Positions 2,822 through 57,116 of a DNA stretch of 64,000 nucleotides are shown one piece after another. The notes beneath the pieces were generated by a model. That model saw only the letters and a list, made by a program, of their open reading frames with translations, was not told the origin of the DNA and ran no database searches. Source of the stretch: Ianthella basta (taxonomy: Eukaryota; Porifera; Demospongiae; Verongiida; Ianthellidae); assembly GCA_964019415.1 (NCBI GenBank), contig OZ025870.1, positions 3,450,408 to 3,514,407 on the forward strand. The letters run 5' to 3'. Position 1 is the first letter of the stretch. Every line of letters starts with the position of its first letter. The position numbers were made by a program, and so were the translations under genes.

Positions 2822-2977
2822 CTCACAAGTTGGGTTTGAGGCGTGAAGGTCCATGAAGGAATCGGCATGGGGGATCCCTGATTACTCAATGTCATCCATT
2901 AAGAGGAGGGTTTCATTAGTCGCTGGTTGTGGACAGGGCAGGACCTCAGGGGTGGGTGGGGGGAGGGAGCTGTTCAC

Positions 2978-3293: not shown

Positions 3294-3377
3294 CTGAGAT
3301 AGTGAACTGAATGGGTCTGGTGTTCCGGGGAGGTAGCTCACTGTCAGGACCTGCTCACTCAGTGGAGCCACCTCACC
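3294..3377 (-). CDS. HYDIN: HYDIN-like exon downstream of the giant intron
   Basis: A 28-codon phase 0/0 exon with acceptor CTCTCCAG and donor CAG|GTACAG. It encodes GEVAPLSEQVLTVSYLPGTP followed by DPFSSLSQ. E-Q-L-V-YLPG-P--F is the mid-strand of the HYDIN beta domain whose first strands are in the exon at 52316-52450 and whose last strand (IQIGH..LLGEGFFP) is in the exon at 2978-3120. This makes it the downstream anchor of the satellite-filled intron. Confidence 0.93.
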
Positions 3378-3433
3378 CTGGAGAGGGATGCACACAAGTA
3401 CAGTAGATACATGTACATAATATTTATATGATA

Positions 3434-6400
3434 AGGTAAGATCTGGCAAGATATGACAAGGTAAGATCTGGCAAGATATGACAAGGTAAGATCTGGCAAG
3501 ATATGACAAGGTAAGATTAGGCAAGATTAGGGAAGATATGACAAGGTAAGATTTGACAAGATTTGGCTAGATATGACAAGGTAAGATTAGGCAAGATTTG
3601 GCAAGATATGACAAGGTAAGATTAGGCATGATTAGGCAAGATATGACAAGGTAAGATTTGGCAAGATTTATGGCAAGATTTGGAAAGATATGGCAAAGTT
3701 AGAATTGGCAAGATTTGGCAAGATATGACAATGTAAGATTTGGCAAGATTTGGCAAGATATGACAAGGTAAGATTTGGCAAGATTTGGCAAGATATGACA
3801 AGGTAAGATTAAGCAAGATTTGGCAAGATATGACAAGGTAAGATTAAGCAAGATTTGGCAAGATATGAGAAGGTAAGATTTGGTAAGATTAGGCAAAATA
3901 TGACGAGGTAAGATTAAGCAAGATTTGGCAAGATATGACAAGGTAAGATTAAGCAAGATTTGGCAAGATATGACACGGTAAGATTTGGCAAGATTTGGCA
4001 AGATATGACAAGGTAAGATTAAGCAAGATTAGGCAAAATATGACAAGGTCTGATTTGGCAAGATTAGGCAAGATATGACAAGGTAAGATCTGGCAAGATA
4101 TGACAAGGTAAGATCTGGCAAGATATGACAAGGTAAGATTAGGCAAGATTAGGGAAGATATGACAAGGTAAGATTTGACAAGATTTGGCTAGATATGACA
4201 AGGTAAGATTAGGCAAGATTTGGCAAGATATGACAAGGTAAGATTAGGCATGATTAGGCAAGATATGACAAGGTAAGATTTGGCAAGATTTATGGCAAGA
4301 TTTGGAAAGATATGGCAAAGTTAGAATTGGCAAGATTTGGCAAGATATGACAATGTAAGATTTGGCAAGATTTGGCAAGATATGACAAGGTAAGATTTGG
4401 CAAGATTTGGCAAGATATGACAAGGTAAGATTAAGCAAGATTTGGCAAGATATGACAAGGTAAGATTAAGCAAGATTTGGCAAGATATGAGAAGGTAAGA
4501 TTTGGTAAGATTAGGCAAAATATGACGAGGTAAGATTTGGCAAGATTTGGCAAGATATGACAAGGTAAGATTTGGCAAGATTTGGCAAGATATGACAAGG
4601 TAAGATTAAGCAAGATTTGGCAAGATATGACAAGGTAAGATTAAGCAAGATTTGGCAAGATATGACACGGTAAGATTTGGCAAGATTTGGCAAGATATGA
4701 CAAGGTAAGATTAAGCAAGATTAGGCAAAATATGACAAGGTCTGATTTGGCAAGATTAGGCAAGATATGACATGGTAAGATTTGGCAAGATTTGGCAAGA
4801 TATGACAAGGTAAGATTTGGCAAGATTTGGCAACATATGACAAGGTAAGATTTGGCAAGATTATGCAAGATATCATGACAAGGTAAGATTTGGCAAGATT
4901 TGGCAAGATATGACAAGGTAAGATTAAGCAAGATTATGCAAGATATGACAAGGTAAGATTAAGCAAGATTTGGCAAGATATGACAAGGGAAGATTTGGCA
5001 AGATTAGGCAAAATATGACAACTTGAAGGTAAGATTTGGCAAGATTTGGCAAGATATGACAAGGTAAGATTTGGCAAGATTTGGCAAGATATGACAAGGT
5101 AAGATTAGGCAAGATTAGACAAGATATGACAAGGTAAGATTAGGCAACATTAGGCAAGATATGACAAGATATGATTTGGCAAGATTTGGCAAGATATGAC
5201 AAGGTAAGATTTGGCAAGATTAGGCAAGATATGACAAGGTAAGATTTGGCAAGATTTGGCAAAATATGACAAGGTAAGATCTGCATGGCAAGATTAGGCA
5301 AGATATGACAAGGTAAGATTAGGCAAGATTAGGCAACATGACAAGGTAAGATGAAGCAAGATTTGGCAAGATATCACAAGGTAGATTTGGCAAGATTTGG
5401 CAAGATATGGCAAGGTAAGATTTGGCAAGATTTGGGAACATATGACGAGGTAAGATTAGGCAAGATACGGCAAGATATGACAAGGTAAGATTTGACAAGA
5501 TTAGGCAAGATAAGACAAGGCAAGGTCTGGCAAGATTAGGCAAGATATGACAAAGTAAGATCTGGCAAGATATGACAAGGTAAGATTCTGGCAAGATTAG
5601 GCAAGATATGACAAGGTAAGATCTGGCATGATATGACAAGGTAAGATTTGGCAAGATTTGGCAAGATATGACAAGGTAAGATTTGGCAAGATTTGGCAAG
5701 ATATGACAAGGTAAGATTTGGCAAGATTAGGCAAGATATGACAAGGTAAGATTTGGCAAGATTAGGCAAAAAATGACAAGGTAAGATTTGGCAAGATTAG
5801 GAAAGATATGACAAGATAAGTTTTGGCAAGATTTGGTAAGATATGACAAGGTAAGATATGCATGGCAAGATTAGGCAAGATATGACAAGGTAAGATTAGG
5901 CAAGATTAGGCAACATGACAAGGTAAGATTTGGCAAGATTTAGCAAGATATGACAAGGTAAGATTAGGCAAGATTTGGCAAGATATGAGAAGGTAAGATT
6001 TGGCAAGATTAGGCAAGTTATGACAAGGTAAGATTAAGCAAGATTTGGCAAGATATGACAAGGTAAGATTTGGCAAGATAAGGCAAAATATGACAAGGTA
6101 AGATTTGGCAAGATTTGGCAAGATATGACAAGGTAAGATTTGGCAAGATTAGGCAAGATATGACAAGGTAAGATCTGGCAAGATATGACAAGGTAAGATT
6201 TGGCAAGATTAGGCAAGATATGACAAGGTAAGATCTGGCAAGATATGACAAGGTAAGATTCTGGCAAGATTAGGCAAGATATGACAAGGTAAGATCTGGC
6301 AAGATATGACAAGGTAAGATTTGGCAAGATTTGGCAAGATATGACAAGGTAAGATATGCATGGCAAGATTAGGCAAGATATGACAAGGTAAGATTAGGCA

Positions 6401-8549
6401 AGATTAGGCAACATGACAAGGTAAGATTTGGCAAGATTTAGCAAGATATGACAAGGTAAGATTAGGCAAGATTTGGCAAGATATGAGAAGGTAAGATTTG
6501 GCAAGATTAGGCAAGTTATGACAAGGTAAGATTAAGCAAGATTTGGCAAGATATGACAAGGTAAGATTTGGCAAGATTAGGCAAAATATGACAAGGTAAG
6601 ATTTGGCAAGATTTGGCAAGATATGATAAGGTAAGATTTGGCAAGATTAGGCAAGATATGACAAGGTAAGATCTGGCAAGATATGACAAGGTAAGATTTG
6701 GCAAGATTAGGCAAGATATGACAAGGTAAGATCTGGCAAGATATGACAAGGTAAGATTCTGGCAAGATTTGGCAAGATATGACAAGGTAAGATTTGGCAA
6801 GAATAGGCAAGATATGACAAGGTAAGATTTGGCAAGATTTGGCAAGATATGACAAGGTAAGATTTGGCAAGATTAGGCAAAATATGACAAGGTAAGATTT
6901 GGCAAGATTAGGCACGATATGACAAGTTAAGATTAGGCAAGATTTGGCAAGATATGACAAGGTACGATTTGGCAAGATTAGGCAAGATATGACAAGTTAA
7001 GATTTGGCAAGATATGACAAGGTAAGATTAGGCAAGATTTAGACAAGATATGACAAGGTAAGATTAGGCAACATTAGGCAAGATATGAAAAGATAAGATT
7101 TTGCAAGATTTGGCAAGATATGACAAGGTAAGATTTGGCAAGATTAGGCAATATATGGCAAGGTAAGATTTGGCAAGATTTGGCAAGATATGACAAGATA
7201 AGATTTGGCAAGATTAGGCAATATATGGCAAGGTAAGATTTGGCAAGATTTGGCAAGATATGACAAGGTAAGATTTGGCAAGATTTAGCAAGATATGACA
7301 AGGTAAGATTAGGCAAGATTTGGTAAGATATGAGAAGGTAAGATTTGGCAAGATTAGGCAAGATATGACAAGGTAAGATTAAGCAAGATTTAGCAAGATA
7401 TGAGAAGGTAAGATTTGGCAAGATTAGGCAAGTTATGACAAGGTAAGATTAAGCAAGATTTGGCAAGATATGACAAGGTAAGATTTGGCAAGATTAGGCA
7501 AAATATGACAAGGTAAGATTTGGCAAGATTTGGCAAGATATGACAAGGTAAGATTTGGCAAGAATTGGCAAGATATGACAAGGTAAGATTTGGCAAGATT
7601 TGGCAAGATATGACAAGGTAAGATTTGGCAAGATTAGGCAAAATATGACAAGGTAAGATTTGGCAAGATTAGGCACGATATGACAAGTTAAGATTAGGCA
7701 AGATTTGGCAAGATATGACAAGGTACGATTAGGCAAGATTTAGACAAGATATGACAAGGTAAGATTAGGCAACATTAGGCAAGATATGAAAAGATAAGAT
7801 TTTGCAAGATTTGGCAAGATATGACAAGGTAAGATTTGGCAAGATTAGGCAATATATGGCAAGGTAAGATTTGGCAAGATTTGGCAAGATATGACAAGAT
7901 AAGATTTGGCAAGATTAGGCAATATATGGCAAGGTAAGATTTGGCAAGATTTGGCAAGATATGACAAGGTAAGATTTGGCAAGATTTAGCAAGATATGAC
8001 AAGGTAAGATTAGGCAAGATTTGGTAAGATATGACAAGGTAAGATTTGGCAAGATTAGGCAAGATATGACAAGGTAAGATTAAGCAAGATTTAGCAAGAT
8101 ATGAGAAGGTAAGATTTGGCAAGATTAGGCAAGTTATGACAAGGTAAGATTAAGCAAGATTTGGCAAGATATGACAAGGTAAGATTTGGCAAGATTAGGC
8201 AAAATATGACAAGGTAAGATTTGGCAAGATTTGGCAAGATATGACAAGGTAAGATTTGGCAAGATTAGACAAGATATGACAAGGTAAGATCTGGCAAGAT
8301 ATGACAAGGTAAGATTTGGCAAGATTAGGCAAGATATGACAAGGTAAGATCTGGCAAGATATGACAAGGTAAGATTCTGGCAAGATTAGGCAAGATATGA
8401 CAAGGTAAGATCTGGCAAGATATGACAAGGTAAGATTTGGCAAGATTTGGCAAGATATGACAAGGTAAGATTTGGCAAGAATTGGCAAGATATGACAAGG
8501 TAAGATTTCGCAAGATTTGGCAAGATATGACAAGGTAAGATTTGGCAAG
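3434..8549. repeat. 35-bp satellite array, segment 1
   Basis: Tandem units of three related decamers, GATTTGGCAA, GATTAGGCAA and GATATGACAA, plus a 5-bp GGTAA spacer (35 bp). Shorter 25-bp units lack the middle decamer and read GATCTGG. Common variants are TTAAGC for TTTGGC, AAAATATG, and GACGAGG. Longer blocks are duplicated: 622 bp apart (3515 and 4137 onward), 498 bp apart (5851 and 6349) and 701 bp apart (7074 and 7775). The plus strand is purine-rich with strong G-over-C skew. No protein gene is seen. Long minus-strand open frames are a by-product of the repeat. Confidence 0.98.
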
Positions 8550-9755
8550 AAAGGAAGCAGACTAGAGTGTGCAAACTACAGAGGAATTAGTCTAATGAGT
8601 ATTGTTGGTAAGGTGTTTGCGAGGGTATTGAATGAGCGGGTGAAGATGGCAACAGTTGACACAGTGATGGACGAGCAAGGAGGTTTCAGAACTGGCAGGG
8701 GGTGCAATGACCAAATTTTTGCAGTCAAGCAAATTGTGGAGAAAACCATTGAGAAAGATAAGAAAACATACATGGCTTTTGTGGATCTGGAAAAGGCATA
8801 CGACAATGTAAGCAGGGAAAAGTTGTGGAAAGTGCTATATGCTTATGGGGTGAAAGGAAGGCTGTTAAGGGCAATTCAGGCACTGTATGTCAACGGAAGG
8901 GCCAAGGTGAAAGTTGGGGAAATGGAATCAGAGTTGTTTGAGGTGCATAGAGGTGTGAGGCAGGGTTGCACTCTCTCACCATGGCTCTTTAATGTGTTTA
9001 TCGACAGTGTGACGAGGGAGGCAAGAAGGCAGTTTCTGAGGGAGGTGAAGTTGTCAACTGGTGATGTAGGGCTACTCCTTTTTGCGGATGACATGGTGGT
9101 AATGGCAGAATCAGTGGAAGGGCTACAGCACAATTTACAGGTGATGAGTGATGTGCTGAGCAGGTGGGAGCTGAGGGTGAATTGGAGAAAGACTAAAGTG
9201 ATGAGGATTGCAAGGAAGAGAGAGGAATGTGAAGTCAAAATTGATGAAGAGGTAATAGAACAGGTAGATGCAATGAAGTACTTGGGTGTGATGATTAGTA
9301 GTGATGGGAGAATGGAGAAGGAAGTAGAGGCAAGGATTGGGGGTGCAACACGGGTGATCGGAGGGTTGAATGATGTAGTACTGAGAAGGAAGGAATTGAG
9401 CAGGAGCACTAAGCTGAAAGTAGTGAATGCCACAGTGATGCCAACATTATTGTACGGTTGTGAGACGTGGACTCTATCTAAGCAGCAGCAATTGAAAGTG
9501 CAGGCCACCCAGATGAAGGTGTTGAGGCAGATCGAAGGTGTGACTAGGTTGGATCGGATGAGAAATGTAGACATTAGGGAGAAGTTGAGACAAGAAAGTG
9601 TTTTGGATGCAGTGAAGAGAAGGCAGGAGAAGTGGAGGGTTAGACTGGAAGAAATGAGCAATGAGAGGTTAACAAAGAAAGTTTTTGTTGGAGAGATGGA
9701 GGGGAAGAGACCAAGAGGAAGACCACGCTCAAGATGGACAGATAATTTTAAATAG
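8550..9755 (+). CDS. LINE reverse transcriptase, N-terminally truncated
   Basis: About 400 uninterrupted codons. Visible RT motifs are CANYRGISLMS (motif 2a region), FVDLEKAYD with catalytic Asp, GVRQGCTLSPWLFN, and FADD, the YxDD box, about 190 residues in. After these come KYLGVMISSDGR, an LLYGCETW block and a basic C-terminus GKRPRGRPRSRW, a combination common in endonuclease/RT elements of invertebrates. The endonuclease and RT N-terminus are missing, so it cannot be autonomous. The frame stays open upstream into the satellite (a TTG at 8517), but nothing indicates that this start is used. The clade cannot be settled by eye. Confidence 0.92.
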   Translation, partial: KGSRLECANYRGISLMSIVGKVFARVLNERVKMATVDTVMDEQGGFRTGRGCNDQIFAVKQIVEKTIEKDKKTYMAFVDLEKAYDNVSREKLWKVLYAYGVKGRLLRAIQALYVNGRAKVKVGEMESELFEVHRGVRQGCTLSPWLFNVFIDSVTREARRQFLREVKLSTGDVGLLLFADDMVVMAESVEGLQHNLQVMSDVLSRWELRVNWRKTKVMRIARKREECEVKIDEEVIEQVDAMKYLGVMISSDGRMEKEVEARIGGATRVIGGLNDVVLRRKELSRSTKLKVVNATVMPTLLYGCETWTLSKQQQLKVQATQMKVLRQIEGVTRLDRMRNVDIREKLRQESVLDAVKRRQEKWRVRLEEMSNERLTKKVFVGEMEGKRPRGRPRSRWTDNFK

Positions 9756-9870
9756 CTTCTATATCGTATAACTAACTACTTGCCATGCTAACATATCAGT
9801 GTATAAGTATAGGGATGACCTCCAGTATTGGAGATGTATCCATTTTGGTTATTGAATTGAATTGAATTGA
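8550..9870 (+). mobile_element. 5'-truncated LINE (copy 1)
   Basis: A non-LTR retrotransposon fragment inserted in the satellite. It starts abruptly inside the reverse transcriptase domain (endonuclease lost), has a short 3' UTR (9756-9850) and ends in an ATTGA/ATTGAATTGA tail at 9851-9870. The satellite string GATTTGGCAAG flanks both ends, which could be a target duplication, but the satellite period makes that undecidable. The 5' truncation is typical of target-primed reverse transcription. Confidence 0.93.
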
Positions 9871-12800
9871 GATTTGGCAAGATTAGGCAAAATATGACAA
9901 GGTAAGATTTGGCAAGATTAGGCAAGATATGACAAGTTAAGATTTGGCAAGATATGACAAGGTAAGATTAGGCAAGATTTAGACAAGATATGACAAGGTA
10001 AGATTAGGCAACATTAGGCAAGATATGAAAAGATAAGATTTTGCAAGATTTGGCAAGATATGACAAGGTAAGATTTGGCAAGATTAGGCAATATATGGCA
10101 AGGTAAGATTTGGCAGTATTTGGCAAGATATGACAAGGTAAGATTTGGCAAGATTTAGCAAGATATGAAAAGGTAAGATTAGGCAAGATTTGGTAAGATA
10201 TGAGAAGGTAAGATTTGGCAAGATTAGGCAAGATATGACAAGGTAAGATTAAGCAAGATTTGGCAAGATATGATAAGGTAAGATTTGGCAAGATTAGGCA
10301 AAATAGGACAAGGTAAGATTTGGCAAGATTAGGCAAGATATGACAAGGTAAGATTTAGCAAGATTTGGCAAGATATGACAAGGTAAGATTTGGCAAGATT
10401 AGACAAGATATGACAAGGTAAGATTTGGCAAGATTTGGCAAGATATGACAAGGTAAGATCAGCATGGCAAGATTAGGCAAGATATGACAAGGTAAGATTA
10501 GGCAAGATTAGGCAACATGACAAGGTAAGATTAAGCAAGATTTGGCAAGATATGACAAAGTAAGATTTGGCAAGATTTGGCAAGATATGACAAGGTAAGA
10601 TTTGGCAAGATTTGGCAACATATGACGAGGTAAGATTAGGCAAGATAAGGCAAGATATGACAAGGTAAGATTTGACAAGATTAGGCAAGATATGACAAGA
10701 TAAGATCTGGCAAGATATGACAAGGTAAGATTTGGCAAGATTAGGCAAGATATGACAAGGTAAGATCTGGCAAGATTAGGCAAGATATGACAAGGTAAGA
10801 TTCTGGTAAGATTAGGCAAGATATGACAAGGTAAGATTTGGCAAGATATGACAAGGTAAGATTTAGCAAGATTAAGTAAGATATGACAAGGTAAGATCTG
10901 GCAAGATATGACAAGGTAAGATTTGGCAAGATTAGGCAAGATATGACAAGGTAAGATTCTAGTAAGATTAGGCAAGATATCACAAGGTAAGATTTGGCAA
11001 GATATGACAAGGTAAGATTTGACAAGATTTGGCAAGATATGACAAGGTAAGATCTGGCAAGATTAGGCAAGATATGAAAAGGTAAAATTAGGCAACATTA
11101 GGCAAGATATGAAAAGATAAGATTTTGCAAGATTTGGCAAGATATGACAAGGTAAGATATGGCAAAATTTGGCAAGATATTGCAAGGTAAAATTTGGCAA
11201 GATTTGGCAAGATATGACAAGGTAAGATTAAGCAAGATTAGGCAAGATATGACAAGGTAAGATTCGGCAAGATTTGGCAAGATATGACAAGGTAAGATCT
11301 GGCAAGATTAGGCAAGATATGACAAGGTAAGATCTGGTAAGATATGACGAGGTATGATCTGGCAAGATATGACAAGGTAAGATCTGGCAAGATTAGGCAA
11401 GATATGACTAGGTAAGATCTTGCAAGATTTGGCTAGATCTGACGAGGTATGATCTGGCAAGATATGATGAGGTAAGATTTGGCAAGATTAGGCAAGATTA
11501 GGCAAGATATGACAAGGTAGGATTAGGCAAGATTTGGCAAGATATGACAAGGCAAGATCTGGCAAGATATGACAAAGTAAGATTAAGAAATATTTGGCAA
11601 GATATGAAAAGGTAAGATTTGGCTAGATATGACCAGGTAAGATTAAGCAAGATTTGGCAAGATATGACGAGGTAAGATTTGGCAAGATTTGGCAAGATAT
11701 GACAAGGTAAGATCTGGCAAGATTAGGCAAGATATGACAAGGTAAGATCTGGCAAGATATGACGAGGTATGATCTGGCAAGATATGACAGGGTAAGATCT
11801 GGCAAGATTAGGCAAGATATGACTAGGTAAGATCTTGCAAGATTTGGCAAGATATGACAAGGTATGATCTGGCAAGATATGATGAGGTAAGATTTGGCAA
11901 GATTAGGCAAGATATGACAAGGTAAGATTAAGCAAGATTAGGCAAAATATGACAAGGTAAGATTTGGCAAGATTAGGCAAGATATAACAAGGTAAGATTA
12001 AGCAAGATTTGGCAAGATATGACCAAGTTAGATTAGGCAAGATTAGACAAGATATGACAAGGTAAGATTAGGCAACATTAAGCAAGATATGACAATATAA
12101 GATTTTGGCAAGTTTTGGCAATATATGACAAGGTAAGATTTCGCAAGATTTGGCAAGATATGACAAGGTAAGATTTGGCAAGATTTGGCAAGATGTGACA
12201 AGGTTAGATTATGCAAGATTAGACAAGATATGACAAGGTAAGATTTGGCAAGATATGAAAAGGTAAGATTTGGCAAGATTTGGCAAGATAAGACAAGGTA
12301 AGATTTGGCAAGATTTGGCAAGATATGACAAGGTAAGATTAGGCAAGATTAGACAAGATATGACAAGGTAAGATTAGGCAACCATATGCAAGATATGACA
12401 AGATAAGATTTGGCAAAATTTGGCAAGATATCACAAGGTAAGATTTGGCAAGATTAGGCAAAATATGACAAGGTAAGATTAGGCAAGATTAGACAAGATA
12501 TGACAAGGTAAGATTAGGCAACATCAGGCAAGATATGACAAGATAAGATTTGACAAGATTTGGCAAGAAAATTTATGACAAGGTAAGATTTGGCAAGATT
12601 AGGCAAGATATGACAAGGTAAGATTTGGCAAGATTTGGCAAGATATGACAAGGTAAGATTTGGCAAGATTTAGCAAGATATGACAAGGTAAGATTTGGCA
12701 AGATTAGGCAAAATATGACAAGGTAAGATTTGGCAAGATTAGGCAAGATATGACAAGATAAGATTCGGCAAGATATGACAAGGTAAGATTAGGCAAGATT

Positions 12801-15800
12801 AGACAAGATATGACAAGGTATGATTAGGCAACTTTAGGCAAGATATGACAATATAAGATTTGGCAAGATTTGGCAAGATATGACTATGTAAGATTTGGTA
12901 AGATTTAACAAGATATGACACGGTAAGATTTGGCAAGATTTAGCAAGATATGACAAGGTAAGAATTGGCAAGATTAGGCAAAATATGACAACGTAAGATT
13001 TGGCAAGATTGGGCAAGTTATGACAAGGTAAGATTTGGCAAGATTTGGCAAGATATGACAAGGTAAGATTAGGCAAGATTAGACAAGATATGACAAGGTA
13101 AGATTAGGCAACATTAGGCAAGATATGACAAGATAAGATTTGGCAAGATTTGGCAAGATATGACAAGGTAAGATTTGACAAGATTAGGCAAGATATGACA
13201 AGGTAAGATTTGGCAAGATTTAGCAAGATATGACAAGGTAAGAATTGGCAAGATTAGGCAAAATATGACAAGGTAAGATTTGGCAAGATTAGGCAAGATA
13301 TGACAATATAAGATTTGGCAAGATTTGGCAAGATATGACAATATAAGATTTGGCAAGATTTGGCAAGATATGACTAGGTAAGATTTGGCAAGGTTAGGCA
13401 AGATTTGACAAGGTAAGATTTGGTAAGATTTGGTAAGATATGACAAGGTAAGATTTGGCAAGATTTAGCAAGATATGACAATGTAAGATTAAGCAAGATT
13501 TGGCAATATATGAGAAGGTAAGATTTGGCAAGATTAGGCAAGATATGACAAGGTAAGATTTGGCAAGATTAGGCAAGATGTGACAAGGTAAGATTTGGCA
13601 AGATTTGGCAAGATATGACAAGGTAAGATTAAGCAAGATTATGCAAGATATGACAAGGTAAGATTAAGCAAGATTTGGCAAGATATGACAAGGTAAGATT
13701 TGGCAAGATTAGGCAAAATATGACAAGATAAGATTTGGCAAGATTTGGCAAGATATGACAAGGTAAGATTTGGCAAGACTTGGCAACATATGACGAGGTA
13801 AGATTAGGCAAGTTAAGGCAAGATATGGCAAGGTAAGATATGGCAAGATATGACAAGGTAAGGTTTGGCAAGATAAGGCAAGATATGAAAAGGCAAGATC
13901 AGGCAAGATATGACAAGGTAAGATTTGGCAAGATTAGGCAAAATATGACAAGGTAAGATTTGGCAAGATTAGGCAAAATATGACAAGGTAAGATTTGGCA
14001 AGATTAAACAAGATATGACAAGGTAAGATTTGGCAAGATTTGGCATGATATGACAAGGTAAGATTAGGCAAGATTAGACAAGATATGACAAGGTATGATT
14101 AGGCAACTTTAGTCAAGATATGACAATATAAGATGTGGCAAGATTTGGCAAGATATGACTAGGTAAGATTTGGCAAGGTTAGGCAAGATTTGACAAGGTA
14201 AGATTTGGTAAGATTTGGTAAGATATGACAAGGTAAGATTTGGCAAGATTTAGCAAGATATGACAATGTAAGATTAAGCAAGATTTGGCAATATATGAGA
14301 AGGTAAGATTTGGCAAGATTAGGCAAGATATGACAAGGTAAGATTTGGCAAGATTAGGCAAGATGTGACAAGGTAAGATTTGGCAAGATTTGGCAAGATA
14401 TGACAAGGTAAGATTAAGCAAGATTATGCAAGATATGACAAGGTAAGATTAAGCAAGATTTGGCAAGATATGACAAGGTAAGATTTGGCAAGATTAGGCA
14501 AAATATGACAAGGTAAGATTTGGCAAGATTAAACAAGATATGACAAGGTAAGATTTGGCAAGATTTGGTAACATATGACGAGGTAAGATTAGGCAAGATT
14601 TGGCAAGATATGACAAGGTAAGATTAAGCAAGATTTGGCAAGATATGACAAGGTAAGATTTGGCAAGATTAGGCAAAATATGACAAGGTAAGATTTGGCA
14701 AGATTTGGCAAGATATGACAAAATAAGATTAAGCAAGATTATGCAAGATATGACAAGGTAAGATTAAGCAAGATTTGGCAAGATATGACAAGGTAAGATT
14801 TGGCAAGGTAATATTTGGCAAGATTAGGCAAGATATGACAAGGTAAGATATGGCAAGATATGACAAGGTAAGGTTTGGCAAGATAAGGCAAGATATGAAA
14901 AGGCAAGATCAGGCAAGATATGACAAGGTAAGATTTGGCAAGATTAGGCAAGATATGACAAGGTAAGATTTGGCAAGATTAGACAAGATATGACAAGGTA
15001 AGATTTGGCAAGAATTGGCAAGATATGACAAGGTAAGAATTGGCAAGATTTAGCAAAATATGACAAGGTAAGAATTGGCAAGATTAGGCAAAATATGACC
15101 AGGTAAGATTTGGCAAGATTAGGCAAGATATGACAAGATAAGATTCGGCAAGATAAGACAAGGTAAGATTAGGCAAGATTAGACAAGATATGACAAGGTA
15201 TGATTAGGAAACTTTAGGCAAGGTATGACAATATAAGATTTGGCAAGATTTGGCAAGATATGACTAGGTAAGATTTGGCAAGGTTAGGCAAGATTTGACA
15301 AGGTAAGATTTGGCAAGATTAGGCAAGATATGACAAGGTAAGATTTGGCAAGATTTGGCAAGATATGACAAGGTAAGATTTGGCAAGATTAGGCAAGATA
15401 TGACAAGGTAAGATTTGGCAAGATTAGGCAAGATATGACAAAATAAGATTAAGCAAGATTATGCAAGATATGACAAGGTAAGATTAAGCAAGATTTGGCA
15501 AGATATGACAAGGTAAGATTTGGCAAGATTAGGCAAAATATGACAAGGTAAGATTTGGCAAGATTGAACAAGATATGACAAGGTAAGATTTGGCAAGATT
15601 TGGCATGATATGACAAGGTAAGATTAGGCAAGATTAGACAAGATATGACAAGGTATGATTAGGCAACTTTAGTCAAGATATGACAATATAAGATTTGGCA
15701 AGATTTGGCAAGATATGACTAGGTAAGATTTGGCAAGGTTAGGCAAGATTTGACAAGGTAAGATTTGGTAAGATTTGGTAAGATATGACAAGGTAAGATT

Positions 15801-42000: not shown

Positions 42001-45000
42001 GATCTGGCAAGATTAGGCAAGATATGACAAGGTAAGATCTGGCAACATATGACGAGGTATTATCTGGCAAGATATGACAGGGTAAGATCTGGCAAGATTA
42101 GGCAAGATATGACTAGGCAAGATCTTGCAAGATTAGGCAAGATATGACAAGGTAAGATCTGGTAAGATATGACGAGGTATGATCTGGCAAGATATCACAA
42201 GGTAAGATCTGGCAAGATTAGGCAAGATATGACTAGGTAAGATCTTGCAAGATTTGGCAAGATCTGACGAGGTATGATCTGGCAAGATATGATGAGGTAA
42301 GATTTAGCAAGATTAGGCAAGATTAGGCAAGATATGACAAGGTAGGATTAGGCAAGATTTGGCAAGATATGACAAGGCAAGATCTGGCAAGATATGACAA
42401 AGTAAGATTAAGAAATATTTGGCAAGATATAAGAAGGTAAGATTTGGCAAGATTTGGCAAGATATGACAAGGTAAGAATACGCAAGATTTGGCAAGATAT
42501 GACGAGGTAAGATTTGGCAAGATTTGGCAAGATATGACAAGGTAAGATCTGGCAAGATTAGGCAAGATATGACAAGGTAAGATCTGGCAAGATATGATGA
42601 GGTATGATCTGGCAAGATATGACAGGGTAAGATCTGGCAAGATTAGGCAAGATATGACTAGGTAAGATCTTGCAAGATTTGGCAAGATATGATGAGGTAA
42701 GATTTGGCAAGATTAGGCAAGATTAGGCAAAATATGACAAGGTCAGATTAGGCAAGATTTGGCAAGATATGACAAGGTTAAATCTTGCAAGATATGACCA
42801 GGTAAGATTTGGCAAGATCTGGCAAGATATGAGGAGGTACGTATGATCTGGCAAGATATGACGAGGTGAGATTAGGCAAGATATGACAAGGTAAGATCTG
42901 GCAAGATTAGGCAAGATATGACAAGGTAAGATCTGGCAAGATATGACAAGGTAAGATTTGGCAACATTTGGCAAGATGTGACGAGGTATATGATCTGGCA
43001 AGATATGACAAGGTAAGATTTGGCAAGATTAGGCAAGATATGACAAGGTAAGATCTGGCAAGATTAGGCAAGATATGACATGGTAAGATCTGGCAAGATA
43101 TGACAAGGTAAGATCTGGCAAGATTTGACAAGGAAAGATTAGGCAAGATATGACAAGGTAAGATCTGGCAAGATATGACAAGGTAAGATTTGGCAACATT
43201 TGGCAAGATGTGACGAGGTATCTGATCTGGCAAGATATGACAAGGTAAGATTTGGCAAGATTTGGCAAGATATGACAAGGTAAGATCTGGCAAGATTAGG
43301 CAAGATATGACATGGTAAGATCTGGCAAGATATGACAAGGTAAGATCTGGCAAGATTTGACAAGGAAAGATTAGGCAAGATATGACAAGGTAAGATCTGG
43401 CAAGATTAGGCAAGATATGACAAGATAGGATTAAGCAAGATTTGGCAAGGTATTGAAGGTACGATTTTGAAAGATTTTGCAAGATATGACAAGGTAAGAT
43501 TTGGCAAATCTTGGCAAGATATTGCAAGGTAAGATTTGGCAAGATTTGGCAAGATAAGACAAGGTAAGATTAAGCAAGATTAGGCAAAATATGACAAGGT
43601 AAGATTCGGCAAGATTTGGCAAGATATGACAAGGTAAGATCTGGCAAGATTAGGCAAGATATGACAAGGTAAGATTTGGCAAAATTTGGCAAGATATTAC
43701 AAGGTAAGATTTGGCAAGATTAGGCAAGTTATGACAAGGTAAGATTTGGCAAGATTAGGCAAGTTATGACAAGGTAAGATTAAGCAAAATTTGGCATGAT
43801 ATGACAAGGTAAGATTTAGCAAGATTTGGCAAGGTAAGATCTGGCAAGATACGACAAGGTAATATTAGGCAAGATATGGCAAGGTAAGATCTAGCAAGAT
43901 TAGGCAAGATATGACAAGGTAAGATTAAGCTAGATTTGGCAAGGTATTGAAGGTAAGATTTGGCAAGATTTTGCAAGATATGACAAGGTACGATTAGGCA
44001 AGATTAGGCAAGATATGACAAGGTAAGATTTGGCAAAATTTTGCAAGATATTGCAAGGTAAGATTTGGCAAGATTAGGCAAGTTATGACAAGGTAAGATT
44101 AAGCAAGATTTGGCATGATATGACAAGGTAAGATTTGGCAAGATTTGGCAAGATATGACAAAGTATGATCTGGCAAGATATGACGAGGTAAGATCTGGCA
44201 AGATATGACAAGGTAAGATTAGGCATGATATGACAAGGTAAGATCTGGCAAGATTAGGCAAGATATGGCAAGATATGACAAGGTAAGATTTGGCAAGATT
44301 AGGCAAGATATGACAAGGTAAGATTAGGCAAGATTAGGCAAGATATGACAAGGTAAGATTTGGCCAGATTTGGCAAGGTAAGATCAGGCAAGATACGACA
44401 AGGTAAGATTAGGCAAGTTATGGCAAGGTAAGATCTAGCAAGATTAGGCAAGATATGACAAGGTAAGATTAAGCTAGATTTGTCAAGGTATTGAAGTTAA
44501 GATTTGGCAAGATTTTGCAAGATATGACAAGGTACGATTAGGCAAGATTAGGCAAGATATGACAAGGTAAGATTTGGCAAAATTTTGCGAGATATTACAA
44601 GTTAAGATTTGGCAAGATTAGGCAAGTTATGACAAAGTAAGATTAAGCAAGATTTGGCATGATATGACAAGGTAAGATTTGGCAAGATTTGGCAAGATAT
44701 GACAAGGTATGATCTGGCAAGATATGACGAGGTAAGATCTGGCAAGATATGACAAGGTAAGATTTGGTAAGATTAGGCAAGATATGACAAGGTAAGATCT
44801 GGCAAGATATGACAAGGTAAGATTTGGCAAGATATGACAAGGTAAGATTTGGCAAGATTTAGCAAGATATGACAAGGTAAGATTAAGCAAGATTAGGCAA
44901 GATATGACAAGGTAAGATTAAGCTAGATTTGGCAAGGTATGAAGGTAAGATTTGGCAAGATTTTGCAAGATATGACACGGTACGATTAGGCAAGAATAGG

Positions 45001-48000
45001 CAGGATATGACAAGGTAAGATTTGGCAAAATTTGGCAAGATATTACAAGGTAAGATTTGGCAAGATTAGGCAAGTTATGACAAGGTAAGATTAAGCAAGA
45101 TTTGGCATGATATGACAAGGTAAGATTTGGCAAGATTTGGCAAGATATGTCAAGGTAAGATCTGGCAAGATACGACAAGGTAAGATTAGGCAAGATATGA
45201 CAAGGTAAGATCTGGCAAGATTAGGCAAGATATGACATGGTAAGATTAAGCTAGATTTGGCAAGGTATTGAAGGTAAGATTTGGCAAGATTTTGCAAGAT
45301 ATGACAAGGTAAGATTTGGCAAAATTTGGCAAGATATTTACAAGGTAAGATTTGGCAAGATTTGGCAAGATATGACAAGTTAAGATTAAGCAAGATTAGG
45401 CAAGATATGACAAGGTAAGATTTGGCAAGATATGACAAGGTGAGATTTGGTAAGATTCGGCAAGATATGACAAGGTAAGATCTGGCAAGATATGATGAAG
45501 TATGATCTGGCAAGATTTGGCAAGATATCACAAGGTAAGATTAAGCAATAGTTGGCAAGATATGACAAGGTAAGATTAGGCAAGGTTAGGCAAGATATGA
45601 CAAGTTAAGATTAGGCAAGATTGGGCAAGATATGACAAGGTAAGATTAAGCAAGATTTGGCAAGATATGACATGGTAAGATTTGGCAAGATTTGGCAAGA
45701 TATGACATGGTAAGATTTGACAAGATTTGGCAAGATATGACAAAGTAAGATTTGGCAAGATTTGGCAAGATATGACAAGGTAAGATTTGGTAAGATTAGG
45801 CAAGATATGACGAGATATAATCTGGCAAGATATGGCGAGGTAAGATCTGGCAAGATATGACAAGGTAAAATCTGGCAAGATATGACAAGGTAAGATCAGG
45901 CAAAATTTTGCAAGATATTTTAAGGTAAGATTTGGCAAGATTAGGCAGGTTATGACAAGGTAAGATTAAGCAAGATTTGGCAAGTTATGACAAGGTAAGA
46001 TTTGGCAAGATTAGGCAAGATATGACGAGGTAAGATCTGGCAAGATATGACGAGGTAATATCTGGCAAGATATGACAAGGTATGATCTAGCAAGATATGA
46101 CAAGGCAAGATGTGGCAAGATTAGGCAAGATATGACAAGGTAAGATCTGGCAAGATATGATGAGGTACGATCTGGCTAGATAGGACGCGATAAGATTTGG
46201 CAATATTAGGCAAGATATGACAAGGTAAGATCTGGCAAGATATGACAAGATAAGATTTGGCAAGATTTGGCAAGATTAGGCAAGATATGCCAAGGTAAGA
46301 TTAGGCAGATATGACAAGGTAAAATTAGGCAAGATTAGGCAAGATATGACAAGGTAAGATTTGGCAAGATCTGGCAAGATACGACGAGGTATGATCTGGC
46401 AAGATATGACGAGGTAAGATCTGGCAAGATATGACGAGCTAAGATTAGGTAAGATATGACAAGGTAAGATCTGGCAAGATTAGGCAAGATATGACTAGGT
46501 AAGATCTGGCAAGATATGACAAGATAAGATTTGGCAAGATTTGGCGAGATTAGGCAAGATGTGACAAGGTAAGATTAGGCAGATATGACAAGGTAAGATT
46601 AGGCAAGATTGGGCAAGATATGACAAGATATATTTGGCAAGATTTGGTAAGATATAACAAGGTAAAATCTGGCAAGATATGACAAAGTATGATCTGGCAA
46701 GATATGACAAGGTAACATCTGGCAAGATATGACAAGGCAAGATTTGGCAAGATATGACAAGATATGACAAGGTAAAATCTGGCAAGATATGACGTGGTAA
46801 GATCTGGCAAGATACGATGAGGTAAGATCTGGCAAGAAATGACAAGGTAAGATCTGGCTAGATTAGGCAAGATATGACAAGGCAAGATTTGGCAAGATTT
46901 GGCAAGATATGACAAGGTAAAATCTGGCAAGATATGACGTGGTAAGATCTGGCAAGATATATATGATGAGGTAAGATCTGGCAAGATATGACAAGGTAAG
47001 ATCTGGCTAGATTAGGCAAGATATGACAAGGTATAATCTGGCAAGATATAACAATTTATGATCTGGCAAGATATGACGAGGTAAGATTTGGTAAGATTAG
47101 GCAAGATTAGGCAAGATATGAGAAGGTAAGATCTGGCAAGAAATGACAAGGTAAGATTAGGCAAGATATGAGAAGGTAAGATCTGGCAAGATATGACGAA
47201 GTTAGATTTGGCAAGATTTGGCAAGATATGACATGGTAAGATCTGGCAAGATATGACAAGGTAAGAACTGGCAAGATTAGGCAAGATATGACAAGGTAGA
47301 ATCTGGCAAGATATGACGAGGTATGATCTGGCAAGATATGATGAGGTAAAATCTGGCAAGATAGGACGAGGTAAGATTTGCCAAATTTAGGCAAGATTAG
47401 GCTAGATATGACAAGGTAAGATTAGGCAAGATTTGGCAAGATATGACAAGGTAAGATCTGGCAAGATATGACAAGGTAAGATTAGGCAAGACTAGGCAAG
47501 ATATGACAAGGTAAAATCTGGCAACATATGACATGGCAAGATTTGGCAAGATTTGGCAAGATATGACGAGGTATGATCTGGCAAGATATGATGAGGTAAG
47601 ATCTGGCAAGATATGACAAGGTAAGATTTGGCAAGATTAGGCAAGATATGAGAAGGTAAGATCTGGCAAGAAATGACAAGGTAAGATTAGGCAAGATATG
47701 AGAAGGTAAGATCTGGCAAGATATGACAAGGTTAGATTTGGCAAGATTTGGCAAGATATGACGAGGTAAGATCTGGCAAGATATGACAAGGTAAGAACTG
47801 GCAAGATTAGGCAAGATATGACAAGGTAGAATCTGGCAAGATATGACGAGGTATGATCTGGCAAGATATGACGAGGTAAAATCTGGCAAGATAGGACGAG
47901 GTAACATTTGGCAAGATTAGGCAAGATTAGGCTAGATATGACAAGGTAAGATTAGGCAAGATTAGGCAAGATATGACAAGGTAAGATCTGGCAAGATATG

Positions 48001-50683
48001 ACAAGGTAAGATTAGGCAAGACTAGGCAATATATGACAAGGTAAAATCTGGCAAGATATGACATGGTAAGAGTTGGCAAGATTTCGCAAGATATGACGAG
48101 GTATGATCTGGCAAGATATGATGAGGTAAGATCTGGCAAGATATGACAAGGTAAGATTTGGCAAGATTAGGCAAGATATGACAAGGTAAGATCTGGCAAG
48201 ATATGACACGGTAAGATCTGGCAAGATATGACAAGGTAAGATTTGACAAGATTTGGCAATATATGATGAGGTAAGATTTGGCAAGATTGGGCAAACTATG
48301 ACGAGGTATGATCTGGCAAGGTACGATGAGGTAAGATATGGCAAGATATGACAAGGTAAGATTTGGTAAGATTAGGCAAGATATGACAAGGTAAGATCTG
48401 GCAAGATATGACAAGGTAAGATCTGGCAAGATATGACAAGGTAAGATTTGACAAGATTTGGCAAGATATGATGAGGTATGATCTGGCAAGATTTGGCAAG
48501 ATATGACGAGGTAAGATTAGGCAAGATTAGGCAAGATATGACAAGGTTAGATCTGGCAAGATATGACGAGGTATGATCTGGCAAGATATGACAAGGTAAG
48601 ATCTGGCAAGATATGACAAGGTAAGATCTGGCAAGATTAGGCAAGATATGACAAGGTAAGATCTGGCAAGATATGACAAGGTAAGATTAGGCAAGATGAG
48701 GTAAGATATGACAAGGTAAGATCTGGCAAGATATGACAAGGTAAGATTTGGCAAGATTTGGCAAGATATAACAAGGCAAGATCTGACAAGATATGACGAG
48801 TTATGATCTGGCAAGATATGACAAGGTAAGATCTGGCAAGATATGACAAGGTAAGATCTGGCAAGATTAGGCAAGATATGACAAGGTAAGATCTGGCATG
48901 ATATGACAAGGTAAGATTAGGTAAGATGAGGCAAGATATGACAAGGTAAGATCTGGCAAGATATGACAAGGTAAGATTTGGCAAGATTTGGCAAGATATG
49001 ACGAGGTAAGATCTGGCAAGATATGACAAGGTAAGATTTGGCAACATTAGGCAAGATATGACAAGGTAAGATCTGGCAAGATTAGGCAAGATATGACAAG
49101 GTAAGATCTGGCAAGATATGACAAGGTAAGATTAGGCAAGATGAGGTAAGATATGACAAGGTAAGATCTGGCAAGATATGACAAGGTAAGATTTGGCAAG
49201 ATTTGGCAAGATATGACAAGGTAAGATCTGGCATGATATGAAGAGGTATGATCTGGCAAGATATGACAAGGTAAGATCTGGCAAGATTAGGCAAGATATG
49301 ACAAGGTAAGATCTGGCAAGATATGACAAGGTAAGATTTGGCAAGATTTGGCAAGATATGACGAGATAAGATCTGGCAAGATATGACAAGGTAAGATTTT
49401 GCAACATTAGGCAAGATATGACAAGGTAAGATCTGGCAAGATATGACAAGGTAAGATCTGGCAAGATATGACAAGGTAACATCTGGCAAGATATGACAAG
49501 GTAAGATTTGGCAAGATTTGGCAAGATATGACGAGGTAAAATCTGGCAAGATATGACAAGGTAAGATTTGGAAAGATATGACGAGGTAAGATCTGGCAAG
49601 ATATTCCGAGGTATGATCTGGCAAGATATGACAAGGTAAGATCTGGCAAGATATGACAAGGTAAGATCTGGCAAGATTAGGCAAGATATGACAAGGTAAG
49701 ATCTGGCAAGATATGACAAGGTAAGATTAGGCAAGATGAGGTAAGATATGACAAGGTAAGATCTGGCAAGATATGACAAGGTAAGATTTGGCAAGATTTG
49801 GCAAGATATGACAAGGTAAGATCTGGCAAGATATGATGAGGTATGATCTGGCAAGATATGACAAGGTAAGATCTGGCAAGATTAGGCAAGATATGACAAG
49901 GTAAGATCTGGCAAGATATGACAAGGTAAGATTTGGCAAGATTTGGCAAGATATGACGAGATAAGATCTGGCAAGATATGACAAGGTAAGATTTTGCAAC
50001 ATTAGGCAAGATATGACAAGGTAAGATCTGGCAAGATATGACAAGGTAAGATCTGGCAAGATATGACAAGGTAACATCTGGCAAGATATGACAAGGTAAC
50101 ATCTGGCAAGATATGACAAGGTAAGATTTGGCAAGATTTGGCAAGATATGACGAGGTAAGATCTGGCAAGATATGACAAGGTAAGATTTGGAAAGATATG
50201 ACGAGGTAAGATCTGGCAAGATATTCCGAGGTATGATCTGGCAAGATATGACAAGGTAAGATCTGGCAAGATTAGGCAAGATATGACAAGGTAAGATCTG
50301 GCAAGATATGACAAGGTAAGATCTGGAAGATACGACAGATAAGATCTGGCAAGATATGACGAGGTAAGATCTGGCAAGATATAACAAGATAAGATCTGGC
50401 AAGATTTAGCAAGATATGACTAGGTAAGATCTGGCAAGATTAGGCAAGATATGACAAGGTAAGATTTGGCAAGATATGACGAGGTATGATCTGGCAAGAT
50501 ATGATGAGGTAAGATCTGGCAAGATATGATGAGGTAAGATTTGGCAAGATTAGGCAAGATTAGGCAAGATATGACGAGGTAAGATCTGGCAAGATAAGAC
50601 GAGGTAAGATTTGGCAAGATTAGGCAAGATTAGACAAGATTAGGCAAGATATGACAAGGTAAGATTTGGCAGGATATAAGGTA
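33034..50683. repeat. 35-bp satellite array, segment 4
   Basis: Same satellite, with a compositional drift. From about 41.4 kb, and strongly in 46-50.6 kb, 25-bp units with GATCTGG dominate, alternating with 35-bp units. 45-bp units with a doubled middle decamer occur (for example near 50539-50583). Duplicated blocks: about 1015 bp (39569 and 40584), 530 bp (47107/47637 and 47397/47927) and 596 bp (ATTTTGCAACATT at 49397 and 49993). A block with GATTAAGCTAG...GGTATTGAAGG recurs near 43923, 44466, 44908 and 45246. No gene is seen. Confidence 0.98.
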
Positions 50684-50693
50684 ATGGGGCAGA

Positions 50694-51650
50694 AGTGAAG
50701 TTCATTGGGGCACCAGATACAAAATGTTTGCAGGGGATGCCGCATTTCCCGGTGAAGTTCACTGGGGCACCAGATGCCCAATGTTTGCAGGGGATGCCGT
50801 ATTCCCCGGTGAAGTTCATTGGGGCACCAGATGCCCAATGTTTGCAGGGGATGCCGTATTCCCCAGTGAAGTTCACTGGGGCACCAGATGCCAAATGTTT
50901 GCAGGGGATGCTGTATTCCTCAGTGAAGTTCACAGGGGAACCAGATGCAAAATGTTTGCAGGGGATGCCGTATTCCTCGGTAAGTTCATTGGGGCACCAG
51001 ATGCCCAATGTTTGCAGGGGATGCCGTATTCCCCAATGAACTTCACTGGGGCACCAGATGCCCAATGTTTGCAGGGGATGCCGTATTACTCAGTGAAGTT
51101 CACAGGGGAACCAGATGCAAAATGTTTGCAGAGGATGCCGTATTCCCCGGTGAAGTTCATTGGGGCACCAGATGCCCACTGTTTGCAGGGGATGCCGTAT
51201 TCCCCGGTGAAGTTCACTGGGGCACCAGATGCCCAATGTTTGCAGGGGATGCTGTATTTCCCGGTGAAGTTCACTGAGGCACCAGATGCAAAATGTTTGC
51301 AGGGAATGCCGTATTCCCCAATGAACTTCACTGTGGCACCAGATGCCCAATGTTTGCAGGGGATGCCGTATTACTCAGTGAAGTTCACAGGGGAACCAGA
51401 TGCAAAATGTTTGCAGAGGACGCCGTATTCCCCGGTGAAGTTCATTGGGGCACCAGATGCCCAATGTTTGCAAGGGATGCTGTATTTCCGGTGAAGTTCA
51501 CTGAGGCACCAGATGCAAAATATTTGCAGGGAATGCAGTATTCCCCGGTGAAGTTCACTGGGGCACAAGATGCAAAATGTTTGCAGGGGATGCCGTATTC
51601 CCCAGTGAAGTTCACTGGAGCACCAGATGCAAAATGTTTGCAGGGGACAT
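50694..51650. repeat. 57-bp minisatellite array A
   Basis: About 17 tandem copies of a 57-bp unit. Because 57 is divisible by 3, each frame repeats every 19 codons, for example MPYSPVKFTGAPDAQCLQG on the plus strand. Several frames on both strands are open, the longest 256 codons at 50724-51494. Variant copies with GGGGAACCAGATGCAAAATG alternate with the standard GCACCAGATGCCCAATG. No promoter, signal peptide or splice context supports translation. It starts right after the satellite ends and still lies inside the HYDIN intron. The same unit recurs at 61494-61981. Confidence 0.95.
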
Positions 51651-52082
51651 GATTCTGCGGCGACGATTCCTAACAGCAATCCCCATTCCATGGCAATGCA
51701 TTTACTGAAGAGAAGAATCGTTCTGTACAGTACTGATTTCTTTAATGATATCTGCAATATCTAGCTACGTTGCACACCTGCCAGTAAGAGAGATTTTGCG
51801 ATTTGTTCTGTTTGGCTAGTTGTACCATGGCTACAAGCGTTACTAAATTGGAGAGACAGTTGTCGTCACACTTACAACAAGCATTGAGTTCAAGTGGTCT
51901 GAGTACTGGCGAAGAGAGGTCAGCTGTGTAGCTAGGCCATTTGGCCAACACCAAGGGGCATGTGATTGAGCATAGATGTACCGTAAATATTCTAAATAAA
52001 TAATCAAAAATCTAAAGTTCGCAAACTTTCAGTGATCTTGCCTTGACCCGCTCTAAAATTCGATTTATTGGCCGTCTCTAAT
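51651..52082. other. unique intronic stretch with one short plus-strand ORF
   Basis: No tandem repeat is visible here. At 51827-51931 (+) there is a 34-codon ATG-to-TAG frame starting MATSVTKLERQLSSHLQQAL and ending GEERSAV. Its Leu/Gln/Ser-rich helical look could be an N-terminal exon or chance, and I do not recognise it. An AT-rich run with TAAATAAATAAT follows at 51985-52005. Confidence 0.35.
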
Positions 52083-52122
52083 GTTTGGCAAATATGACTT
52101 AGGGTGGCAAGATTTGGCAAGG
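52083..52122. repeat. isolated degenerate satellite remnant
   Basis: A roughly 40-bp fragment reads TTTGGCAAATATGACTTAGG, then GTGGCAAGATTTGGCAAGG. This is two or three satellite decamers with lost bases, 1.4 kb beyond the array and about 190 bp from the HYDIN donor at 52315. It shows the satellite once reached, or was seeded, closer to this exon. Confidence 0.75.
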
Positions 52123-52229
52123 CACATACATGTACACACCTCACCTTGTCTGAAGTAGGTTCATACATACGTAGATATTCGTCTCACACTCACCTCCACA
52201 TCACCACATTCCAAGCTATATGCATACAT

Positions 52230-52291
52230 ACACACAGCCCACTCTCCACCAGTAACACCCACACACAGCCCACTCTCCACCAGTAACACCC
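52230..52291. repeat. 31-bp tandem duplication
   Basis: Two exact adjacent copies of a 31-bp CACACAGCCC...CAGTAACACCC unit at 52230-52260 and 52261-52291, in the first 90 bp of the giant intron. Confidence 0.9.
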
Positions 52292-52315
52292 ACTAACCCA
52301 ACACACTTTACTCAC

Positions 52316-52450
52316 GGAGGTAGGATGAACTGTGACTTGTCCCAGTGGGGGTGGTCCTGCCCCTCCCTCTGCTCCAAATACACTGTACTCAAACTCAACA
52401 CGGCCAGTGTTCCTCAGCACCACTGCCTCCAGGAGCACCCTGTCATACAA
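52316..52450 (-). CDS. HYDIN: HYDIN-like exon upstream of the giant intron
   Basis: A 45-codon phase 0/0 exon between acceptor GTGTAG and a perfect donor GTGAGT. It encodes LYDRVLLEAVVLRNTGRVEF, then EYSVFGAEGG, then PPPLGQVTVHPTS. L-NTG-V-FE-SVL followed by a Pro/Gly-rich loop is a well-known repeating signature of HYDIN domains. Its continuation, EQVLTVSYLPGTP, is in the exon at 3294-3377, across the satellite. The acceptor is preceded directly by a (TG)n/(TC)n tract. Confidence 0.93.
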
Positions 52451-52806: not shown

Positions 52807-52959
52807 CTAGGGGAAAGGGAGGAGTTAATTGTATGGGGAAGCAGCATACATACATATGTCATAATTCAGCTATGATCCATAGTATACAATACACAGTTGA
52901 AGATAAGTACATTCAACACTTTTGCACACAATTTATCTTTGTTAGTGTGAAAGAATATA

Positions 52960-55225: not shown

Positions 55226-55228
55226 AGT

Positions 55229-57110: not shown

Positions 57111-57116
57111 TTGTAT

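What the first reader, a model, noticed from the sequence alone, without database searches (positions are those of the whole stretch)
3378..52315. A 47-kb satellite array sits inside one intron of HYDIN
Exons at 52316-52450 (..NTGRVEFEYSVF..HPTS) and 3294-3377 (GEVAPLSEQVLTVSYLPG..) are consecutive parts of one HYDIN beta domain, both phase 0, with good donor and acceptor. All other introns seen in the gene are under about 350 bp. A megasatellite-scale block inside a conserved ciliary gene is unusual, because such arrays usually mark heterochromatin. The gene may be silenced, or the array may be tolerated and transcribed through.
Basis: partly seen in the sequence, partly recalled or inferred. 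Interest (0 to 1): 0.85.

Follow-up and report, generated by a model that had tools for sequence, protein, structure and literature searches.

The report
Satellite-filled intron in duplicated HYDIN fragment
The 47-kb repeat block does sit in an intron, but of a broken partial copy of the cilia gene HYDIN; the apparently working HYDIN elsewhere in the same genome carries a shorter block of the same repeat in the same intron.

Summary
A satellite array (window 3448-50650, with three reverse-transcriptase inserts) lies between two HYDIN exons that join without a break against solved HYDIN structures. The reading "47-kb array inside the HYDIN gene" does not hold. The window is one of 8 loci in this 209-Mb genome that match this stretch of HYDIN. 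HYDIN homology stops at window 53321, and the copy has a stop codon and two frameshifts. Two HYDIN exons outside the duplicated block were found only on contig C14. The same intron there holds about 12.2 kb of the same satellite with the same edges. Codon changes indicate constraint toward C14 (dN/dS about 0.08, my three-point estimate), against 0.54-1.05 among the other copies. The array therefore probably entered the intron before the duplication and later changed length. The satellite is common genome-wide (6404 exact hits of a 33-mer). Satellite-bearing introns of cilia genes and partial HYDIN duplication both have precedents. The apparent tolerance of the block in C14 HYDIN is the part worth testing. 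The organism was not identified, and no RNA data were available.

The parts
2..285 (-). remnant of the exon leading into the HYDIN adenylate-kinase-like domain, frameshifted against the C14 copy; the block continues left of the window
   Evidence: two frames; 2-bp insertion
628..867 (-). HYDIN exon copy (MAYSQV...)
   Evidence: 100% protein identity to C14 over 80 of 80 residues
1205..1351 (-). HYDIN exon copy (KHMPLH...)
1856..2008 (-). HYDIN exon copy (VVGGPC...)
   Evidence: 100% protein identity to C14 over 51 of 51 residues
2167..2435 (-). HYDIN exon copy (PILPDY...) with a 1-bp deletion (frameshift)
2753..3034 (-). HYDIN exon copy (RDPDGL...) with an in-frame stop, read off the sequence at about 2882-2884
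3294..3377 (-). HYDIN exon just downstream of the satellite intron (GEVAPLSEQ...), phase 0
3448..50650 (.). satellite array, period 35/25 bp from 10- and 15-bp words; reads AAGATTTGGC/AAGATATGACAAGGT on the + strand, so the HYDIN sense strand is its pyrimidine-rich complement
8551..9870 (+). reverse-transcriptase-bearing retroelement piece inside the array, ending in TTGAA repeats; present with its surroundings in the C3:3.69 Mb copy and, as far as the fetched stretch reaches, in the C3:4.09 Mb copy
23722..24960 (-). second retroelement piece inside the array (reverse-transcriptase-like, in two frames)
30592..33036 (-). third retroelement piece inside the array (791-aa open frame, reverse-transcriptase-like by eye)
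50695..51647 (+). 57-bp minisatellite, about 17 copies; a single partial unit at this place in the C14 intron; same repeat at many other genomic sites
51648..52315 (.). rest of the intron up to the donor, with a short stretch resembling diverged satellite at about 52093-52125 (by eye)
52316..52450 (-). HYDIN exon just upstream of the satellite intron (LYDRVL...HPTS), phase 0
52627..52807 (-). next upstream HYDIN exon (LTPGQTQQIKL...)
53282..53320 (-). end piece of the next upstream HYDIN exon (KEDPFVPISIQ); homology to C14 ends at 53321 = duplication breakpoint
53346..61981 (.). non-HYDIN spacer duplicated along with the fragment: three pieces at 93-96% with C3:3614920-3623744; about 60150-60983 is not covered there

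Best explanation
A dispersed satellite of this genome lies in one intron of HYDIN. A block of HYDIN with about 7 kb of exons downstream of that intron, the satellite, and two exons plus a piece of a third upstream was copied from contig C14 to other contigs, mainly a 0.7-Mb stretch of C3 that contains the window. The copies lack the start of the gene and picked up stops and frameshifts; among themselves they look near-neutral. The array length differs between them (about 7 kb in one copy, 47 kb in the window), and array stretches with their retroelement insert were copied again. The HYDIN on C14 shows constraint and carries about 12.2 kb of satellite in the same intron. The most likely reason that this is tolerated is that the array is removed with the rest of the intron, and that its orientation leaves the pre-mRNA strand almost free of splice-donor-like sequence, so that internal cryptic exons are unlikely. 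Shown here by sequence: placement, copies, breakpoint, lesions, contrast in dN/dS, strand asymmetry. Inferred: the direction C14 to C3, transcription through the array, the splicing reason for tolerance, and exchange between repeats as the copying mechanism.
For: HYDIN identity and junction. The downstream flank (window 2150-3430) has 9 matches at 8 loci: 6 on C3, 1 on C54, 1 on C14; the upstream flank also has several. C14 continues as HYDIN on both sides: C14:290420-290938 matches residues 3479-3655 of 9ijj, C14:324836-325132 residues 634-737; each of these two exons gave 1 match in the genome, on C14. Six PF22544 hits on the minus strand span C14:283787-327757, 4 of them over the cut-off. 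Homology of window and C14 ends at window 53321. Lesions relative to C14: a stop, a 1-bp deletion and a 2-bp insertion in 3 of 7 downstream exons of the window; each of the other 4 copies compared carries at least one frameshift or stop. dN/dS is 0.22-0.29 for C14 against 5 of 5 copies and 0.54-1.05 for 9 of 10 copy pairs (the tenth, window vs C3:4.083 Mb, has one difference only). My three-point arithmetic on those rounded values gives dS about 0.05 and dN about 0.004 for the C14 side. Same array edges. Array about 12.2 kb in C14 and 7.2 kb in the C3:3.606 Mb copy. Window 8500-11900 is 99.5% identical over 3401 bp, retroelement included, to C3:3685884-3689284. A junction in C3 joins two (CA)n tracts that lie at opposite ends of the block in C14. 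Gene-sense strand of the window array: 0 donor-like sites (7 or more of 9 positions) in 42.2 kb against 0.37/kb in 5 mononucleotide shuffles; other strand 27/kb.
Against: No RNA data, so neither silence of the window copy nor splicing of the C14 intron is shown. Two window exons equal C14 exactly in protein, so the loss may be young or the copy was once constrained; the stem before the copies split cannot be separated from the C14 branch. Copy-to-copy dN/dS goes down to 0.54 and was not tested statistically against 1. The pre-mRNA strand still has acceptor-like sites (4.1/kb, only somewhat below shuffles at 5.6-6.1/kb). A ~0.3-kb inverted piece in the C14 array does carry donor-like sites (0.41/kb over the whole C14 array, 0 without the piece). 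All HYDIN arrays seem to descend from one insertion, so the orientation argument rests on a single event. The C14 gene left of 290001 was seen only as profile hits, and PF22544 also rings in 4 of 14 control genomes. Two C14 upstream pieces gave no PDB hit.
Confidence: 0.82

Rival explanations
1. The window holds the working (or silenced) HYDIN gene itself, with a 47-kb satellite intron.
For: Exons, phases and splice sites at the array edges are good.
Against: 5' truncation at 53321, a stop and two frameshifts; two HYDIN exons outside the block were found only on C14.
Confidence: 0.03
2. One or more C3 copies have become a new HYDIN-derived transcript or gene with a new promoter, as reported for human HYDIN2.
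For: Some exons are open and near-identical to C14; the Hydin_ADK match is open in 4 of 4 C3 copies that match it (72-79 positions each).
Against: Each of the 5 copies compared has at least one frameshift or stop; copy-to-copy dN/dS is 0.54-1.05.
Confidence: 0.07
3. The C3 cluster is partly an assembly artefact: haplotype copies or misjoined satellite reads placed as extra loci.
For: Window and C3:4.088 Mb are 99% identical over the 1281-bp flank, and arrays of this size are hard to assemble; C54 is a small 110-kb contig.
Against: Noncoding differences between copies are 2.8-5.9% in 10 of 10 pairs (simple repeats may inflate this), several copies carry different lesions, and the same edges recur at several loci.
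Confidence: 0.08

Closest known systems
Satellite-filled gigantic introns of Drosophila Y genes kl-3 and kl-5 (PMC6508621; outline, abstract and nine passages seen)
   Same: [quoted passage not shown] there the satellite introns are transcribed.
   Different: Those introns reach megabases and lie on the Y chromosome; here about 12 kb on C14 and 47 kb in a broken copy, and transcription is untested.
Human HYDIN2, an incomplete duplication of 79 internal HYDIN exons (PMC5345166; outline and abstract seen)
   Same: Internal exons of HYDIN copied to another chromosome without the gene's start; relaxed selection.
   Different: Here several small copies, mostly in one cluster, each with stops or frameshifts where compared, built around a satellite intron; no evidence of transcription.
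Dispersed satellite-like arrays in euchromatin, e.g. Tribolium TCAST and oyster repeats carried by Helentrons (PMC3411249, PMC7492417; search listings only)
   Same: Satellite found at many sites, near genes or with mobile elements.
   Different: Arrays here reach tens of kilobases; no carrier element for the 35-bp satellite was found or searched for systematically.

Membership tests
Satellite DNA family | head-to-tail tandem arrays of one monomer at high copy number | tested here: met
   about 1365 units; 6404 exact 33-mer hits in the genome; control with the pattern read backwards 0
Satellite DNA family | several genomic locations | tested here: met
   (C1, C3, C10, C14 among others)
Satellite DNA family | heterochromatic packaging | not testable with these tools
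   no chromatin data
Gene with satellite-bearing large intron (kl-3/kl-5 type) | satellite array lies inside an intron of a protein-coding gene | tested here: met
   C14: HYDIN exons on both sides of the array, donor and acceptor present
Gene with satellite-bearing large intron (kl-3/kl-5 type) | the host gene in the window is functional | tested here: not met
   truncation, a stop and two frameshifts
Gene with satellite-bearing large intron (kl-3/kl-5 type) | the host gene on C14 is functional | tested here: inconclusive
   exons compared are intact and constrained, but the gene was not read end to end and expression is unknown
Gene with satellite-bearing large intron (kl-3/kl-5 type) | array transcribed as part of the pre-mRNA and spliced out | not testable with these tools
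   no RNA data
Partial segmental duplication of HYDIN (HYDIN2-like) | internal exons copied elsewhere without the terminal exons | tested here: met
   (tested with one exon on either side of the block)
Partial segmental duplication of HYDIN (HYDIN2-like) | relaxed selection on the copies | tested here: met
   (no significance test)
Partial segmental duplication of HYDIN (HYDIN2-like) | new promoter and fusion transcripts | not testable with these tools
   no RNA data

The most novel reading that the evidence does not exclude
A strongly strand-asymmetric satellite (about 27 splice-donor-like sites per kb on one strand, none on the other) survives and grows inside live introns only in the donor-free orientation, and the intronic array in turn promoted repeated copying of the surrounding HYDIN piece, so that a conserved cilia gene sheds dead fragments around a growing satellite.
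Probability: 0.2. Interest if true: 0.6.

Novelty: new member of a known kind. Interest (0 to 1): 0.4.

Why it matters
If the C14 gene is expressed, this is a conserved cilia gene that keeps a 12-kb satellite in an intron, with broken sister copies that show how the same array behaves without constraint on its host. That gives a natural comparison for array growth, and a clear test of whether splice-site content decides which satellites an intron can hold. It also warns that annotation could take the window copies for real HYDIN genes.

Tried and rejected
Rejected: assembly misjoin at the array edges (same edges at several loci); the window as the full gene; a satellite restricted to HYDIN. 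Led nowhere: PDB searches with a 39-aa C14 upstream exon and a 298-aa C14 open frame gave 0 hits; Pfam gave Ig_CFAP65_4th (and Cep192_D3 below its cut-off) for the window exons, Hydin_ADK for one C14 exon, and nothing for the 173-aa C14 exon. PF22544 also rings in 4 of 14 control genomes, and one of its 7 hits here (C14:191651, other strand) lies outside HYDIN. No relatives of this genome are held, so the intron in other species could not be checked. The organism was not identified; I did not run the search for homologous proteins. A circular-DNA origin was considered for the (CA)n junction, but the copies extend beyond that tract, so a tandem exchange fits better; not proven. Papers holding HYDIN, satellite DNA and intron together: 0 in the library searched; of 1,411 papers with at least 2 of the terms sponge genome, satellite DNA, tandem repeats, HYDIN, the 12 listed do not hold HYDIN.

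Limits of the numbers: the interiors of the arrays at C3:3.68, 3.88 and 4.09 Mb were not read beyond short fetched stretches, so I give lengths only for the window, C14 and C3:3.606 Mb. On C1 one array was seen at both edges (8.266 and 8.291 Mb) and another only at its left edge (13.946 Mb); their continuity between is inferred from 33-mer hits. Genome searches score only the best candidates, so copy counts are lower bounds. The splice-donor consensus used is recalled.
Full report
What is there. The window lies at C3:3450408-3514407 of a 209-Mb, 96-contig genome. Between two exons on the minus strand, 52316-52450 and 3294-3377, lies an intron of 48,938 bp. Most of it is a satellite with period 35 built from 10- and 15-bp words, running from about 3448 to 50650. 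Three retroelement pieces with reverse-transcriptase-like sequence interrupt it. At its right end sits a 57-bp minisatellite (50695-51647), itself common elsewhere in the genome.

The exons are HYDIN. The translation of 52627-52807, 52316-52450 and 3294-3377 matches residues 1377-1509 of HYDIN in PDB 9ijj with no break at the satellite intron (E 3.9e-26), and Hydin in 7sqc and 7n6g at residues 1213-1338.

It is not the gene. The flank downstream of the array matches 8 loci: six on C3 between 3.447 and 4.089 Mb (the window included), one on C54 and one on C14 (9 matches). The upstream flank also matches several loci on C3, C10, C14 and C54. On C14, HYDIN exons continue on both sides of the intron: residues 634-737 at C14:324836-325132 and 3479-3655 at C14:290420-290938. 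Each of these exons gave one match in the genome. Six PF22544 hits on the same strand span C14:283787-327757, 4 over the cut-off; a seventh lies elsewhere on C14, and this profile also rings in 4 of 14 control genomes, so it is supporting evidence only. In the window, homology to C14 stops at 53321 inside an upstream exon. Beyond that point comes non-HYDIN sequence, of which 53346-61981 is itself duplicated at C3:3614920-3623744 in three pieces of 93-96% identity.

Lesions. Against C14, 3 of the 7 downstream exons compared in the window are damaged: an in-frame stop (about 2882-2884), a 1-bp deletion and a 2-bp insertion. The C3:4.083 Mb copy shares these. The C54, C3:3.602 Mb and C3:3.445 Mb copies carry others. 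The window's other four exons in that set are undamaged, two of them with 100% protein identity to C14 over their full length, which points to a young loss or earlier constraint.

Selection. By the Nei-Gojobori method on a MAFFT alignment, dN/dS between C14 and each of 5 copies is 0.22-0.29; between copies it is 0.54-1.05 in 9 of 10 pairs, the tenth pair being nearly identical. Three-point arithmetic on those rounded numbers puts dS about 0.05 and dN about 0.004 on the side leading to C14, a ratio near 0.08. That side includes any stem the copies share. Site counts are small (270-435 synonymous sites) and no significance test was run.

The same intron in C14. Its array is about 12.2 kb (TRF spans 12,198 bp in one row), with the same edges and orientation, and with a short inverted piece near C14:311.1-311.4 kb. 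The 57-bp repeat is a single partial unit there. The C3:3.606 Mb copy has about 7.2 kb. The simplest reading is that satellite and flanking element predate the duplication and that lengths changed afterwards. Two more minisatellites, 28 bp x 43 and 41 bp x 48, lie in the HYDIN region of C14, apparently in introns.

How the copies arose. In C3 a piece of the upstream exon ends in a (CA)n tract that joins directly to sequence matching the far downstream end of the block, C14:298941, which also begins in a (CA)n tract. This fits exchange between dinucleotide tracts. Later, array stretches were copied with their insert: window 8500-11900, retroelement included, is 99.5% identical over 3401 bp to C3:3685884-3689284, and window 8001-9731 is 99.88% identical to C3:4093521-4095251. 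Which contig was the donor is inferred from completeness and constraint, not shown.

The satellite at large. An exact 33-mer of it occurs 6404 times, 3142 forward and 3262 reverse, with 0 for the pattern read backwards; the window has 184 and C14:290001-330000 has 39. One array on C1 was seen at both edges and another at one edge; neither edge sequence shows HYDIN by eye, and the HYDIN flank searches gave no match on C1. The HYDIN arrays are therefore members of a widespread satellite.

Why it may be tolerated. On the HYDIN sense strand the window array has 0 donor-like sites (at least 7 of 9 consensus positions) in 42.2 kb, against 0.37/kb in 5 mononucleotide shuffles; the opposite strand has 27/kb. 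The C14 array has 0.41/kb, all of it from the inverted piece. Acceptor-like sites are only somewhat reduced (4.1 against 5.6-6.1/kb). Without donors, internal exons are unlikely, so the array should be removed as one intron. This is an inference from sequence, based on what seems to be one ancestral insertion.

What is known. Satellite-filled, transcribed introns of axonemal genes are described in Drosophila (PMC6508621, abstract and passages). A partial HYDIN duplication is described in humans (PMC5345166, outline and abstract). A search for HYDIN with satellite DNA and intron found no paper in the library. I rate the finding a new member of known kinds, of moderate interest because of the C14 gene.

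Noticed in passing
window 50695-51647 and 61493-61981: A 57-bp minisatellite occurs twice in the window and gave 117 scored matches across many contigs (the window's own included), often as longer tandem blocks; it may be part of a dispersed element.
   Followed up: partly
window 55260-56200: Minus-strand open stretches with kelch-like repeats in the duplicated spacer; a resemblance read by eye, not searched.
   Followed up: no
L033 3503-4713 and 5385-7395 (C14:293503-294713 and 295385-297395): Two further minisatellites (28 bp x 43; 41 bp x 48) in the HYDIN region of C14, apparently intronic.
   Followed up: partly
window 3448-50650: The array has far fewer CpG than expected from its C and G counts (171 against 1086); by eye, many units carry GACAAGG where others carry GACGAGG.
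   Followed up: no
C14:318700-319384: A block with hairpin-like repeats (AAATTTTCGTGG...) sits in the C14 intron near the donor; the window lacks it at this place.
   Followed up: no
window 63480-64000: Start of what looks by eye like a retroelement gag-type open frame at the right edge of the window; not searched.
   Followed up: no
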